From the NCBI GenBank assembly GCA_022494885.1, contig JAGVSM010000181.1, positions 62,001 through 126,000 on the forward strand: 64,000 nucleotides of DNA, in the 5' to 3' direction. Of this stretch, positions 3,898 to 45,062 are shown in pieces; within the stretch, counting starts at the first letter, position 1; each line of letters starts with the position of its first letter. Position numbers and translations under genes: made by a program. The DNA comes from Micrasema longulum. Taxonomy: Eukaryota > Arthropoda > Insecta > Trichoptera > Brachycentridae. The notes beneath the pieces were generated by a model. The model saw only the letters and a program-made list of their open reading frames with translations, searched no databases and had not been told where the DNA came from.

Positions 3898-4141
3898 TTA
3901 CTGACGTCCGGCTGGACGACTACGCTGACCTTCGGCTGCGAGCTGCCCGACTACACCCTGGCTCCGGAGGCCGTGAGCATGGTGACATGGATGTGGTGGA
4001 CCATGATGCTGAAGCTGGCCGAGCTGCTCGAGACGATGTTCTTCGTGCTGCGCAAGAAGGAGAGCCAGGCGTCCTTCCTGCACATGTACCACCACGTCAG
4101 CACGCTCATCATCGTGTGGATGGGCGTCAAGTACGTCGGAG
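3898..4141 (+). CDS. ELO-family fatty-acid elongase, internal exon with histidine box
   Basis: This exon encodes about 81 residues of an ELO/ELOVL elongase, the ER-membrane condensing enzyme that extends long-chain fatty acyl-CoA with malonyl-CoA. Visible motifs are LTSGWTTTLTFGC early in the exon, KLAELLETMFFVLRKK in the middle (family form K..E..DT.FFVLRKK) and the histidine box HMYHH (4081-4095), expected to be catalytic. It then continues into VWMGVKYVGG. The exon starts after a pyrimidine-poor AG at 3896-3897 and ends before GTAATC at 4142, in phase 1, which fits the next exon exactly. It is strikingly GC-rich against its AT-rich surroundings. The family aspartate before Thr is Glu here. 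The N-terminal exons are not in the window. Confidence 0.93.
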
Positions 4142-7479: not shown

Positions 7480-7992
7480 GAATGATTTGGAAAACTTAGG
7501 AACATACTTGAAAATAAAAAGATTCCGATTTGTCTGAAAAGGAAAACTTTCGAATCATATATACTGCCAGTGACTACACCATATCCATTAGAGACCATGG
7601 CCCTCACACAAAGAAAAGTAGAAAAGCTCAAATGCACACAGCGATCCATGAAAAGATCCATGCTTGGTATAAGCCTAAGAGATAAAATAAGAAATGAAGA
7701 AATTAGGAACAGCACCAGAATAACGGATATTATGGATCGCGTAGCAGGGCTAAAGTGGCAATGGGCAGGACATGTTGCGAGACAAGACCCCACAAGGTGG
7801 ACCCCGAAAATTTTGAGATGGAGACCTCGGGAAAATAAGCGAGGCGTCGGAAGACCTAAAAAAAGATGGTCCGACGACATAGGTACTGTAGGGGGTAAAA
7901 ATTGGCTGCAAGTAGCAACCGACCGAGAAAAATAGAAGAGTATGGAGGAGGCCTATATCCAGCAGTGGAGGACAGAAGGCTAAAGAAGAAAA
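7480..7992 (+). pseudogene. RTE-like endonuclease/reverse transcriptase C-terminus
   Basis: The open frame 7570-7935 includes KLKCTQRSMKRSMLGISLRD, RITDIMDRVAGLKWQWAGHV, GVGRPKKRW and WLQVATDR; after a frameshift it ends MEEAYIQQWRTEG and stop near 7980. This is the widespread arthropod non-LTR tail (LK.AQR.MER.MLG.SLRD ... LKW.WAGH.AR). About 160 codons remain of some 900-1000. It lies between two tails of another retroelement family (7143-7470 and 7995-8215). Confidence 0.8.
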
Positions 7993-14365: not shown

Positions 14366-14370
14366 CATCG

Positions 14371-14409
14371 CACATAAGGACGAATGACCAATTTAGGGCG
14401 CCAAAAATA
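14371..14409 (+). repeat. Transib left terminal inverted repeat
   Basis: It starts CACATAAGGACG. If the first seven bases are read as an RSS-like heptamer, 23 bases separate it from CCAAAAATA at 14401-14409, a spacing equal to that of a 23-RSS. This is the downstream end relative to the transposase. Confidence 0.85.
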
Positions 14410-14602
14410 TAATATTGGGTTTTATTTAATATTATGATCGGAAAAGGATGAAAGATGCCTTTTTGAATAATTATCTTACAAAAAAATGCCCAATTAGGGT
14501 TATTTGGGGTTGGGTTCTCATAAATTCTAATAAAAAAAAATCATATCAATTTGATTCTGTATTCTTTAGTATATGTACATACTATACAATTTGGATAAAA
14601 TT

Positions 14603-16744
14603 CTACTGTACATCAAGATCCTCACCATCTACAACATCATCATCATCATCATCAGACATTTGATCACAGATTCCTTCATCATCACCACCATAGAAAGAAG
14701 GTAGCCTTAGCATGCTTAATACAACTTCATTCAATGGAGTTTGATTTTTTTTTGGCTTTTTTCGCTTACTTGTCACAACAGGGTCTGAAGAGACCAACAT
14801 CCAGTTAAATATATCAATATTTGTGTTAATTCTAGATGTTTTTCTAGAGTGACTACTTCTTAGTTTTTTATATTCCTTGTGTCCTGCCTCAATAACGTCT
14901 TCAGACAGTTGGCCTACTGGTAATGGTAGATATTTCATGATATCTGCCCCGTGTAATAACAATTTATGAACACTGGCACTCATTTTATACCAGCCATAAA
15001 GAGAAACAGCCATTTGAGCTGTTTCGAAACAGTATTTTTGAAATAGCTTTTCATTTACGTAATGCCCACAAGAAATAACGGAAAGCACATTCGAAAATCT
15101 TTCAATAAGTTGTTTATCAATCCCAGTTATTTGGGAAACAAGTGACGGATTTTTAAAAAACTTCCGTGCCGTGTTACCGTCATTACTGTTGCCTCCACCT
15201 TGTTTTGGTTGATCGACAACTAGGCGCATTTCTTTGTAAAATTCAGTAGCTATTTTACTTTTCCTCTCTTTTACTTTTTCTTTTGCATTTATACCTCTTG
15301 CTTGCCACTGCTTTAATTCTAATTTATATGATATATGGAGCAAATATTCATAGCATCTAAGGTGCGCATGTAACACAGAAATACCATATTTAAAGGTATC
15401 TTTATTACAAACTCTGTTTTTTAGTTTTTTAAGATTGTTTAAATCATTAGGAGTAGCTTAACATACATTGCACGCTTGCGAACTTGAGGTATTTGTCAAA
15501 ATATTGACAACCTTCCCATCTAGCATTGTACAAATAGGAATATGTTTGAATTTAAGTACTTTAGTGCCAAGAACGATTACTGATGGCTCTAATTGCAAAA
15601 TTTGTGAGTGTATTTCATTATACTCCTCTTTGACATTCTGATTATTTTCTTTTTTTATTTTGAATGAGATTGGACAGCAATATCGTGTTGACGATGGAGA
15701 CATGTTTTTCCAAAATATTTTACAACGATTAGGTTCACACATTTGCAATGGCACAATTGTACACAAAATTATATTAGAATCCGCATACTCTGAGTTATTC
15801 GCAAAATTTTGTTTATATATACTATGTCCACCGCTGCCATCTAAACCCCATTTATAATAAACATCGATAGTATCATCGCCCTCTGAAATATTTTGTAGTA
15901 TTACATCTGCTTGTACATAAGCCAGGCGTTGTGTTGTATGTATAAGAAGATCCAACAGTGGCACGACAGCCTCATTTTCAGTTATCCTTATATTTGTAGG
16001 ATAACATTTATTTTTTGCCTCTGCTATCACTTGATATGAGGGATAAATGTTAGCCCCTCTCTCTTTTGCTCCAAGTCGCATCCTTAAATAACCTTCTTTT
16101 GTCAACCCGAGATCCACCATAAAACCTAAGGCCTCTTCTGGGCTGTATGGCCTTATGGTCACAGAGGATGAAGTACATGCACCATTTCCATTTTTACAAT
16201 GTTTTGGGCGAAGATTGGATGGCCAATTTTACAACTTGAGCAGCAGTTCTTTTACCTAATATAGTTAAACTTGATGTTATTGCCGAACACAGTTTTTCTG
16301 AACTGATATCAGAAATCACTGATTTAGCATGCCTTTGTTTACTGCGCCCAGAGCTCTCATAGAATATTTTTTTTGGCCTGCCTCGCTTCTTTTCCCCTGA
16401 ACTTTTTGGCGGTAAGGATGAAAGCTGTAATGACTCCATCTTCGGGAGTTTCACTTCTTCGTCAAGCCATTTTTTATGTTTGGTGTAAAAACGCTCGTAC
16501 ATGTAGTTACAGCTACGCCATTTTGTCAAGAGCTTCGAGACAAACACTTTGACTGCTATTTTAATTTGTTTTTCACATTCTTCTGAAAACTTACTGACTC
16601 CAAACTTGTCTAATATATACATAAATGATTGTTTATTACACTTCACTGCCGATAACTTGCAAAACTGTTCATTTTTAAACACCTCAAATAGTTCTTTTCT
16701 TTTAATTTTAATTTCTTTTAGAACGGGTTCGGAACGATGACCTG
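14603..16744 (-). pseudogene. Transib transposase (RAG1-related DDE), frameshift plus in-frame stop
   Basis: Three blocks read on the minus strand. Block 1 (about 16744-16194) has GRPKKIFYESSGRSKQR and TAAQVVKLAIQSSP. It shifts frame near 16200 into block 2 (ending 15458), which has LTKEGYLRMR, NIYPSYQVIAEAK, the first catalytic Asp in KWGLDGSGGHSIYKQ, the second in CTMLDGKVVNILTNTSS, and CNVC followed by TAA. Past that stop the same frame continues ATPNDLNNLKKL into block 3 (to 14603), with GGGNSNDGNTARKFF, a VHKLLLHG zinc-site-like motif, and the third acid in SEDVIEAGHKEYKK, then HSRKTSR and an acidic tail. These match Transib/RAG1 core order. No in-frame ATG is seen upstream of block 1; TTCTTTGCAG at 16735-16744 could be a splice acceptor. 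Confidence 0.9.
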
Positions 16745-17247
16745 CAAAGAATACGCTATATTTTAAAAAGGTGGATGAAAGTGGATGTGAATTTTGTTTT
16801 TTATGCTGGTTATAATGAACTTATTCTATATATTTTCAGATCAGAGTGGAACTCGGTGGTACTTTTTTCTAAACTCAAGGGAAAGTAACCATATTAATAT
16901 TTTTTCTAAACAAAAACAGTGTTTCATAAAACACTGATAATATCTATATTACGTACAATAGTTACATAAATAATGATTGCAGATTAAAGTACTAACCTAA
17001 TACTTTAATATCCATGTTGAAAACTTTGCGATTTTAAATTAAGTAAAACAGGACAAGCGTAGTTACTCCGTCAAAAATCCAAACGCAACTGACTGGTGTT
17101 GGCCATGCCGAAGATAACCCAACTTTGCGCGCATGCGTAAATTGATATGTTGCGTGGACAAAATAAAATTATGCATCACATTGGGTATTGGTTTATTGTT
17201 AACATTTTTAGAGTATTTTTGATAAGTTTAAAGACAACATGAAATCC

Positions 17248-17286
17248 TATTATTGGCGCGCTAAATCAGTCATCCGTCCTTATGTG
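17248..17286 (-). repeat. Transib right terminal inverted repeat
   Basis: Its complement starts CACATAAGGACG and differs from the left end at five of 39 positions (13, 19, 20, 27, 35 from the tip). The nonamer-like segment is CCAATAATA at the same 23-base spacing. It lies on the 5' side of the transposase gene. Confidence 0.85.
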
Positions 17287-17419
17287 CATCGTCGAGAAAA
17301 GATCGAAGTCATTTGGATAATTTAACGATTTTACAATAAGCTAAAAGGGTCGTAGAAAGATGGTCAGATTTTTAAAAAAATTGGTGAAAAATTCGTAACG
17401 AATTATCTATTTTTCTCAG

Positions 17420-17562
17420 GTGGAATGGCCAGTTTTACACCGCTGATTAACACCTTCATTCACATAATAATGTACATCTACTACCTGGCTTCTTCCGAGG
17501 CTAGTCCAGAACTGAGGGCGAAACTCAACAAGTGGAAGATGTGGCTGACTGTTATGCAGATG
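17420..17562 (+). CDS. ELO-family fatty-acid elongase, internal exon
   Basis: This 143-bp exon encodes GGMASFTPLINTFIHIIMY, IYYLASSEASPELRAKLNK and WKMWLTVMQM. N.F.H..MY.YY and the TxxQ segment are the ELO-family motifs that follow the histidine box. The exon joins the previous one in phase 1 (GG|GT codon) after TTTTCTCAG and ends in phase 0 before GTAAGA. MQM joins VQF of the last exon to give the usual T..Q..QF sequence. Upstream it sits only 129 bp from the Transib target duplication. Confidence 0.93.
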
Positions 17563-17599
17563 GTAAGATAAATACTATTTTATTAAGAGTTACCACTTA

Positions 17600-17945
17600 T
17601 TCTTATTCTTAGAGCCGGGGTCAGTGCTATGCAAGCTCCTGGCGTCACTGCGACCTGTGAAGATCTATTGTGACGGGTCCCCGTTAATAGTTCTCGTCCT
17701 CCGAACCCAGGTCTATAAAGAGCCTGGCTACCGTGTAGAAGGCGAGAGTTTACATTTTGCTAAATCTCCCCCTCGAAGCCCAGATCCGTAAAGCGAGGTC
17801 TTTAACATCCTTAGGTTAAACCAGTGATCCCCCGAGGATGAGGCTCTTTTTATAATGTAAAGCATCACATTCACAGAGAATGTGTATAGGTGTTTCCTCA
17901 TCTGCACTGCAGAACCTACATCTTGGAAGTTTCGGAATAGTTCAT
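17600..17945 (-). pseudogene. non-LTR retrotransposon RNase H tail, second copy
   Basis: This is the same family and orientation as 480-880, sharing TGTATAGGTGTTTCCTC, CTGCACTGCAGAACCTACAT and GAAGATCTATTGTGAC. It holds only the C-terminal piece, with frame breaks, and begins 37 bp after the ELO 5' splice site. Confidence 0.6.
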
Positions 17946-39294: not shown

Positions 39295-39880
39295 TTGATT
39301 GTGTTGGGTGTGAAGGTGAAATACGGCGACGTGTTGGTATTGCCAAAAGTGCTATGAGTCGGCTGGTGAAGATTTGGAAGAATCGCAGTATAACCATCAA
39401 CATAAAAAAAAAGTGGTGAAGGCTGTGGTTTTTTCAGTGTTCATGTGCGGTGTGGAGCGTTGGACACAGAGAATTTGAAAAGAAAAAATCGAAGCTCTCG
39501 ATGTGTTTGCGGCGAATGTTGCGGATTCCGTGGACAGCCAGACGAACAAATATATCTACTCCAGGAACTAGACATAAGAGAAAGACTTACATCCATGTGC
39601 AAGAAAAGAATCCCGCAGTTCTTTGGACATATTTCCAGGGGAACTCTGATAGTTTAGAGAAAATTATCCTCCTAGTGAGTGTCGAAGGGACAAGGTCGCG
39701 TGGACGTCAGCCGACGCGATGGAGCGGCTTGGACACTGAATTATCAGAATCATCACTGACAAATGCCTACAGAAGAGCACAAGACCGTTCCCGATGGGGG
39801 GAGACTGTGCACAGATGAGGCATACCTGGAGTGATGCCCGATCCATCATCCGTTTGTCATCAAATCATTTTTAAATTTTA
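39295..39880 (+). pseudogene. non-LTR endonuclease-RT C-terminal relic
   Basis: Frames give CEGEIRRRVGIAKSAMSRL, VKIWKNRSITINIKKK and FSVFMCGVERWTQR, then MLRIPWTARRTN, ELDIRERLTSMCKKRI with QFFGHISRG, and SRGRQPTRWSGLD with YRRAQDRSRWGETV. This is the standard order of a widespread arthropod non-LTR family (CE.EI.RRI..AKSAM ... RRLLRI.WT..RTN ... FGHI.R ... RGRSPTRWSD). At least two frameshifts make it dead. Confidence 0.8.
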
Positions 39881-43739: not shown

Positions 43740-45062
43740 TTTTTTTAACCTACTCTCCAAAATTTATCTTTATGTCCCCTTTCACCTGACAAGAAATTGG
43801 TATTTATTTCAGCTGCCAGTCTGTAGCACTAACTATGCGCAACACTCTTTTCTCTATCGTTCTTGCTCAAACTATAATGTTTTTTTTCATCTATTGATAT
43901 ATATTTTTTTATTTTTTTTATTTTTTGTTTTTTTACAATAAACATAATAATAAAACAGAGTATTAAAAAATAAAGCATAATTACATATCAATGAAATACA
44001 TATTAATAGAAAAATAGTAAACAAAAATCCCACAAAGACATGGCCTGTTCGTGGGTATACAAGAAAATGTTAATGAATTTTTGCTCCTATAATAAATATT
44101 GGACAGTTATAATATTTTTGTATAACATAAGAAAGAAAAAATAAAATATTCTGTAAAAGATAATATGGTTTTTTTTTTATAGTAATTAAAAAAGGAAATA
44201 AAAAATATTTTAAAAAGCACAAAAATATTCCTTATTAAAGGGAAACAAAATAAATCATAGAAAAAAAGAGTTCATATCTTTAGTTTGAATCCAGGATAAT
44301 GCATGTTTTTTAAAAGAAGGAAAATTTTGAATGTTTGTAATCAATGAAATATTATCAGTAAAAAAAGAATTAAAAAATTTTGGGCCTATAAAATATGCAT
44401 GTCTCTGTGCGAGCCTCGTTTTACAATGTGGTATTTCTAACACACGATTCCTTCTTTGACTTGATCTATTTGAATTACTTGTAAATAAATTTTGGTTCTT
44501 AAATATATATTTTAAATATTGAAAACAATAAATTTGTCTTAGATCTAAAAGTTTAGCTTCTTGGAACAATTGGAAAGAGGGAAAAGTGCGATTTTTGTGA
44601 AACATTGTTTTTAATATAAATTTATGAACAGTTTCTAATGGTTTAATATGATTGTTGTAAGTTCCCCTTATCTAATTATTCCATAGGAAAGCGATGACTG
44701 TACAAGTGCATAATATACCATTTTAATCGTATTTAGCTGGGCGTAAATACTATATAAAATATTTAACATGCCCCTTAATTTATTTGATAATAAATTAAGA
44801 TTCATTCTTTCTAGCTGCGATACCCTCCCACTTGCTATTTAATGATGCCCACGCTTACACACACCTGAACACTTACTCCCACACAAATACACACAAACAC
44901 ACCTCTACACTTACTTTCATACAAATACACACTAACACACCCTTCTATTTGCCACAAATTAATATGTATAATTTTTATTTCGAAACTTCACTGGTCTGTC
45001 TTTAAAATATCATTGTTGACTGTTTGTTTCTGTAAAAATATTATATGAAGAATATTAAATAA
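43740..45062 (+). pseudogene. non-LTR RT tail (family T), interrupted by another retroelement
   Basis: The + strand encodes NLLSKIYLYVPFHLTRN, QLPVCSTNYAQHSFLYRSC and SNYNVFFHLLIY up to about 43905, and resumes at about 44758 with FNMPLNLFDNKLRFILS and SCDTLPLAI before the stop. The CA-rich 3' UTR (44845-44945) and the end near 45062 match 4446-5250 on the other strand. The intervening 43908-44757 is foreign and antisense. Confidence 0.75.
43908..44757 (-). mobile_element. 5'-truncated Jockey/CR1-like retroelement inserted in the family-T copy
   Basis: The minus strand encodes GTYNNHIKPLETVHKFIL and KTMFHKNRTFPSFQLFQ, then AKLLDLRQIYCFQYLKYIF, RRNRVLEIPHCKTRLAQR and HAYFIGPKFFNSFFTDN to a stop at 44255. 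A long 3' UTR runs to a poly(A) (T-run on the + strand) at 43908-43935. It is the same family as 56318-57014, 60340-60560 and 63594-64000. The insertion breaks an aligned family-T sequence precisely; a target duplication is not clear in the T-rich flank. Confidence 0.8.

What the first reader, a model, noticed from the sequence alone, without database searches (positions are those of the whole stretch)
14366..17291. Transib transposon with perfect target duplication and near-complete RAG1-related transposase
Both inverted ends, the 5-bp duplication CATCG and all three acidic catalytic positions (in GLDGSGG, MLDGK and DVIEAGHKEY) are visible. Only one frameshift (near 16200) and one TAA, replacing the residue after CNVC at 15458-15460, break the gene. 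Such a well-preserved copy implies recent Transib activity in this genome, and active sisters may exist. Transib is the lineage behind V(D)J recombination.
Basis: partly seen in the sequence, partly recalled or inferred. Interest (0 to 1): 0.75.

Follow-up and report, generated by a model that had tools for sequence, protein, structure and literature searches.

The report
Decayed Transib transposon in insect gene
This is a broken but well-preserved copy of a Transib "jumping gene", a distant relative of the enzyme that shuffles our antibody genes; it is a new member of a well-known family, and no working copy was seen in this genome.

Summary
Window 14371-17286 is a 2,916-bp DNA transposon with inverted ends and a perfect 5-bp duplication, CATCG. 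Its minus-strand gene encodes a Transib transposase: two pieces match HzTransib (E 2.9e-61, 2.1e-27), and a family profile also finds ProtoRAG and RAG1. Added here: a predicted short first exon and 255-nt intron; an N-terminal GRP region resembling the RAG1 nonamer-binding domain, missing from the HzTransib chain; and 7-23-9 spacing in the 10 ends aligned. The assembly holds two more nearly full-length copies (97.8% and 96.2% identical), each between two CGGCG. All three are broken, each differently, with 1.1-1.6% private substitutions: a past burst, and no active sister seen, though the protein search of the assembly did not complete. No empty site was found; each unique flank matched only itself. 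The copy lies antisense in an ELO-gene intron, 128 bp before an exon. Insect Transib activity and an NBD in Transibs are already in print. Verdict: an ordinary new member of a known kind.

The parts
14366..14370 (.). target site duplication CATCG, left
17287..17291 (.). target site duplication CATCG, right
14371..14409 (+). terminal inverted repeat at the 3' end of the gene: CACATAA, 23 nt, CCAAAAATA
17248..17286 (-). terminal inverted repeat at the 5' end of the gene: CACATAA, 23 nt, CCAATAATA
16997..17015 (-). predicted exon 1 (ATG GAT ATT AAA GTA TTA G)
   Evidence: ATG and donor GTTAGT in 3 of 3 full copies, exon differing by one base in L002 and two in L003. In 6 relatives about 70-79% alike that cover it, ATGGATATTAAAG and a GT at the donor are kept in L009, L010 and L016 and altered in L011, L012 and L013
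16742..16996 (-). predicted intron, 255 nt
   Evidence: Donor and acceptor (TTTGCAG) kept in 3 of 3 full copies; no transcript evidence
14603..16741 (-). predicted exon 2, rest of the transposase gene, broken by a frame break (about 16174-16196) and a stop (15458-15460)
16197..16382 (-). NBD-like region beginning with GRPKK
   Evidence: GRP at this place in 40 of 51 other rows, one of them the sister L002; weak collinear match to the RAG1 GGRPRQ region, 7.9 bits; none by single-sequence search
15839..15841 (-). catalytic Asp 1 (by homology)
15518..15520 (-). catalytic Asp 2 (by homology)
14888..14890 (-). catalytic Glu (by homology)
15461..15472 (-). CNVC, the Cys pair of the zinc-binding domain (by homology)

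Best explanation
A defective full-length copy of a cut-and-paste DNA transposon of the Transib superfamily. Its source copies probably encoded a transposase of about 715-720 residues from two exons. By relationship to HzTransib and RAG1 (inferred, not tested here), the enzyme bound the two ends at CAC plus an A-rich block 23 nt further in, cut with a DDE active site through hairpins on the flanking DNA, and inserted with a 5-bp stagger, often into GC-rich pentamers. Shown: ends, duplications, gene anatomy, catalytic residues, sister copies, lesions. Inferred: splicing, DNA recognition by the NBD-like region, the hairpin mechanism. The copy landed antisense in an ELO-gene intron, lost its function and now decays.
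For: HzTransib matches of 2.9e-61 and 2.1e-27; family profile against PDB sequences: HzTransib 7.5e-197, ProtoRAG 2.5e-16, RAG1 8.9e-12; Pfam RAG1 in 17 of 51 rows of A2 at E up to 0.01; 86 homologous proteins; a tree placing the window with P0003, P0001, P0002 and two Brassicogethes proteins, support 100/100. Perfect 5-bp duplication in 3 of 3 full copies. Private changes in the gene fall 28, 15 and 28 on codon positions 1, 2 and 3, no third-position excess.
Against: The terminal heptamer CACATAA matches the Transib consensus CACAATG (recalled) at only 4 of 7 places. No Pfam model matches the three window pieces above cut-off, not even RAG1. One old relative, L010, has unlike flanks (ATGTA and CGGCA). 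Neither splicing nor activity was tested.
Confidence: 0.97

Rival explanations
1. The family is still active: intact copies exist in other individuals or in parts missing from this assembly, and the window copy is a recent casualty.
For: Sisters 97.8% and 96.2% identical with perfect duplications; long open transposases in other data (P0001, 657 aa, 73% identical; P0003, 525 aa, 83%); recent Transib1 spread in Drosophila melanogaster is in print (PMC12230796, passages).
Against: 0 of the 3 full copies found in this assembly has an open gene; they carry 31, 31 and 46 private substitutions in 2,888 columns. Open point: the protein search of the assembly for further copies did not complete (last try).
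Confidence: 0.2
2. A domesticated, host-serving RAG1-like gene rather than a transposon.
For: The gene is nearly whole.
Against: Ends and duplications are intact, other copies sit at other sites, reading frames are broken, and private changes show no third-position excess.
Confidence: 0.01
3. A RAG-like (RAG1L-RAG2L, ProtoRAG-type) transposon rather than a Transib.
For: Shares DDE core, CAC ends and 5-bp duplications; the family profile matches ProtoRAG at 2.5e-16.
Against: HzTransib scores far higher (7.5e-197). Apart from the transposase pieces, no unspliced open frame over 77 aa lies inside the element, which leaves little room for a RAG2-like gene; no kelch profile was run. The stretch between the zinc residues aligns with HzTransib without a large insertion.
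Confidence: 0.01

Closest known systems
HzTransib (Helicoverpa zea; PDB 6pqn)
   Same: Transposase core alignable over 483 positions at 36.9% identity; DDE triad; 5-bp duplication (GCTCG for HzTransib in PMC1852546, passages).
   Different: Different clade; the window gene has about 180 more N-terminal residues with a GRP motif that the HzTransib chain lacks (the match starts at profile position 179; the deduced HzTransib protein has 489 aa). End sequences were not compared.
Transib-type sequences P0003, P0001 and Brassicogethes aeneus proteins P0031 and P0065
   Same: Nearest relatives, P0003 83%, P0001 73%.
   Different: From other sources; P0031 and P0065 carry unrelated sequence fused to the Transib part.
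Vertebrate RAG1 and amphioxus ProtoRAG RAG1L
   Same: Homologous catalytic core; a GRP motif in the region that the family profile aligns with the RAG1 GGRPRQ stretch (chain 3jbw, 7.9 bits, weak).
   Different: No RAG2-like partner seen; both ends spaced alike at 23 nt instead of the 12/23 pair.

Membership tests
Transib superfamily | Transposase homologous to Transib/RAG1 core | tested here: met
Transib superfamily | DDE triad in Transib context | tested here: met
Transib superfamily | 5-bp target site duplication | tested here: met
   3 of 3 full copies perfect; of three old copies with both ends, L011 and L016 match at 4 of 5 places and L010 does not match
Transib superfamily | Ends beginning CAC | tested here: met
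   9 of 10 aligned ends, the tenth TAC
Transib superfamily | Heptamer close to CACAATG (recalled consensus) | tested here: inconclusive
   CACATAA agrees at 4 of 7 places
Transib superfamily | Single gene, no RAG2-like partner | tested here: met
   Apart from the transposase pieces no unspliced open frame over 77 aa inside the element; no kelch profile run
Transib Subgroup II (PMC9435367) | No RAG2-binding alpha11-alpha12 segment in the zinc domain | tested here: inconclusive
   Indirect: aligns with HzTransib there without a large insertion; the loss in HzTransib-type Transibs is taken from the paper
Transib superfamily | Excision and insertion activity | not testable with these tools
   No experiment; this copy is broken
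RAG-like transposon (ProtoRAG type) | Paired RAG2-like gene | tested here: not met
   No open frame long enough inside the element besides the transposase pieces
RAG1 nonamer-binding domain | GRP motif followed by NBD fold | tested here: inconclusive
   Motif in 40 of 51 other rows; sequence match weak or absent; fold not predicted, tool switched off

The most novel reading that the evidence does not exclude
This insect Transib lineage keeps a complete RSS-style recognition pair, a GRP-type N-terminal DNA-binding region together with an A-rich nonamer (ACAAAAATA as the majority line of ends; CCAAAAATA and CCAATAATA in the window copy) at a fixed 23-nt distance from CACATAA at both ends, so heptamer-plus-nonamer recognition would work in a symmetric 23/23 form without RAG2 and without the 12/23 rule, unlike HzTransib, whose solved chain lacks the region.
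Probability: 0.3. Interest if true: 0.5.

Novelty: new member of a known kind. Interest (0 to 1): 0.25.

Why it matters
It adds a well-delimited family (ends, duplications, predicted exon structure, sister copies) to the lineage from which V(D)J recombination descends. Its NBD-like region and its 7-23-9 ends make a natural pair for asking how old bipartite end recognition is. Otherwise it is a normal inactive transposon.

Tried and rejected
Rejected: another DDE superfamily (no such hit in the PDB-sequence and Pfam searches), domesticated gene, RAG-like transposon with RAG2 (see rivals).

Led nowhere: viral contigs hold no stretch matching the search patterns. Single-sequence PDB search of the N-terminal piece gave one chance-level match. 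I expected the 23-nt spacer to be much less conserved than heptamer and nonamer; the contrast is small (0.87, 0.81 and 0.90 mean agreement over 10 ends), so bipartite constraint is suggested, not shown. The empty-site search of the window copy's flanks found only the occupied site (the longer right flank was swamped by a repeat). L002's left flank lies next to a high-copy repeat and gave no empty site among the 40 scored of 4,204 candidates; L003's flank search did not complete. A protein search of the assembly with P0001 did not complete in any try (first 48, last 117), so more diverged copies may be missed. Two papers asked for by id are not held, so the original Transib description and the HzTransib structure paper were not seen; the consensus heptamer and the RSS nonamer are recalled. 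The script printed a wrong left flank for L010 (a reused variable); one search gives the right one, ATGTA.

Full report
What is there. The window lies in a 584-Mb, 5,184-contig assembly. At 14371-17286 stands a 2,916-bp element between two copies of CATCG. The ends are inverted repeats: their first 39 nt agree at 34 of 39 places (counted), and an 18-nt end pattern occurs twice in the window, only at the two ends (shuffles mean 0.05).

The gene. The minus strand carries three open pieces. The C-terminal piece matches HzTransib at E 2.9e-61 and ProtoRAG RAG1L at 0.016, the middle piece HzTransib at 2.1e-27; Pfam finds nothing above cut-off in the three pieces. A profile of A2 (P0001, the L003 piece and 49 further proteins) finds HzTransib (7.5e-197), ProtoRAG (2.5e-16) and RAG1 (8.9e-12) among PDB sequences; 17 of its 51 rows match Pfam RAG1 on their own. 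A search of 5.8 billion proteins returned 86 homologs. The catalytic D, D and E are at 15839-15841, 15518-15520 and 14888-14890 and conserved in the family.

First exon. The open piece runs upstream into sequence without a convincing start. A short exon ATGGATATTAAAGTATTAG followed by GTTAGT lies at 17015-16997, and an acceptor TTTGCAG precedes 16741. The ATG, the donor and the acceptor are kept in 3 of 3 full copies; the exon differs by one base in L002 and two in L003. In six relatives about 70-79% alike that cover this stretch, ATGGATATTAAAG and a GT at the donor are kept in three (L009, L010, L016) and altered in three (L011, L012, L013). The splice model is a prediction; no transcript was available.

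N-terminal region. About 180 residues precede the part covered by the HzTransib chain. They contain GRPKK, and GRP stands at this place in 40 of 51 other rows of A1, one of them the sister L002. The family profile aligns it with RAG1 GGRPRQ, but weakly (7.9 bits), and the single-sequence search found nothing of the kind. PMC9435367 (main text read whole; supplement not seen) already reports an NBD with GRP in both Transib subgroups, so this is not new; an older paper held that the canonical Transib transposase has no identifiable domain beyond the core (PMC4411706, passages).

Ends. Ten ends from six elements (the window, L010, L011, L016, L017, L018) align without a gap over 39 nt as 7-23-9; sisters L002-L004 were left out as near-identical, L009 because its end is broken, and the other fetched loci because no end was aligned there. 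Majority: CACATAA, 23 nt, ACAAAAATA. Mean agreement is 0.87, 0.81 and 0.90, a small contrast. The nonamer agrees with the RSS nonamer ACAAAAACC (recalled) at 5-7 of 9 places, the heptamer with CACAATG (recalled) at 3-4 of 7. PMC8355894 (passages) describes symmetric Transib ends with 20-22-bp spacers and some with 12/23 asymmetry.

Copies. One search lists 28 matches in the assembly (a lower bound by the tool's own note). Three copies are near full length: the window, L002 (97.8%) and L003 (96.2%). L004/L005 are pieces of one rearranged copy; L006/L008 (read again as L018) and L007 are older partial copies; most of the rest are 70-81% alike, and at least L010, L011 and L016 are internally shortened. 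Flanking pentamers: CATCG twice at the window copy; CGGCG twice at L002 and at L003; CGGCG on the one resolved side of the C968 copy; CGACG on the one resolved side of L018. Old copies: CCCCA/CCCTA (L011) and CAGCG/CAGCA (L016) differ by one base each; L010 has ATGTA/CGGCA, no duplication. Five-bp duplications are usual for Transibs: 532 of 533 hopper insertions in PMC3276498 (passages).

State and age. The three full copies are all broken, each in its own way: the window by a frame break near 16174-16196 and the stop at 15458-15460, L002 by a frame break and a stop further on, L003 by three frame breaks and two small in-frame deletions. Private substitutions are 31, 31 and 46 in 2,888 columns, that is 1.1, 1.1 and 1.6%. 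With a recalled insect rate of about 3e-9 per site and generation this is some 3.5 to 5.5 million generations (inference, rough). Private changes in the gene fall 28, 15 and 28 on codon positions 1, 2 and 3, without a third-position excess. The 70-81% copies point to earlier activity of the same or a related family.

Place. An ELO-family gene lies on the plus strand: a predicted exon at 3898-4141 and the next at 17420-17562 (joined translation ELO E 3.4e-32). The element sits antisense in the 13.3-kb intron between them, its right duplication ending 128 bp before the second exon. Any effect on splicing is untested.

Relatives. A tree of 36 rows puts the window with P0001, P0002, P0003 and two proteins of Brassicogethes aeneus (a beetle, recalled), support 100/100, away from HzTransib.

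Assessment. Its stronger claim, recent activity with possible active sisters, is not borne out by the copies found in this assembly. Transib activity in insects is documented: Transib1 spread through Drosophila melanogaster in 2013-2016 (PMC12230796, passages). The element is a new member of a known kind.

Noticed in passing
window 3898-4141 and 17420-17562, +: Two predicted exons of an ELO (very-long-chain fatty-acid elongase) gene, with the Transib antisense in the 13.3-kb intron between them.
   Followed up: partly
window about 17595-17900: Interspersed repeat of about 300 bp just after the ELO exon, with very many copies in the assembly (4,205 candidates, 40 scored, 39 of them this repeat at 81-88% identity).
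   Followed up: partly
L002:1100-1442: A second high-copy repeat, showing no significant similarity to the first, lies beside the Transib copy on C1137 (4,204 candidates, 40 scored).
   Followed up: partly
window 7486-7935 (+), 39420-39818 (+), 44255-44671 (-): Open frames of 132-149 aa that look like decayed LINE reverse-transcriptase pieces (by eye, recalled motifs); no Pfam match at E up to 0.01.
   Followed up: partly
P0031, P0065 (Brassicogethes aeneus): Annotated proteins that fuse Transib sequence to unrelated sequence, P0031 to a TTF/hAT-type part by its listed name and domains; possibly gene-prediction artefacts across nested elements.
   Followed up: no
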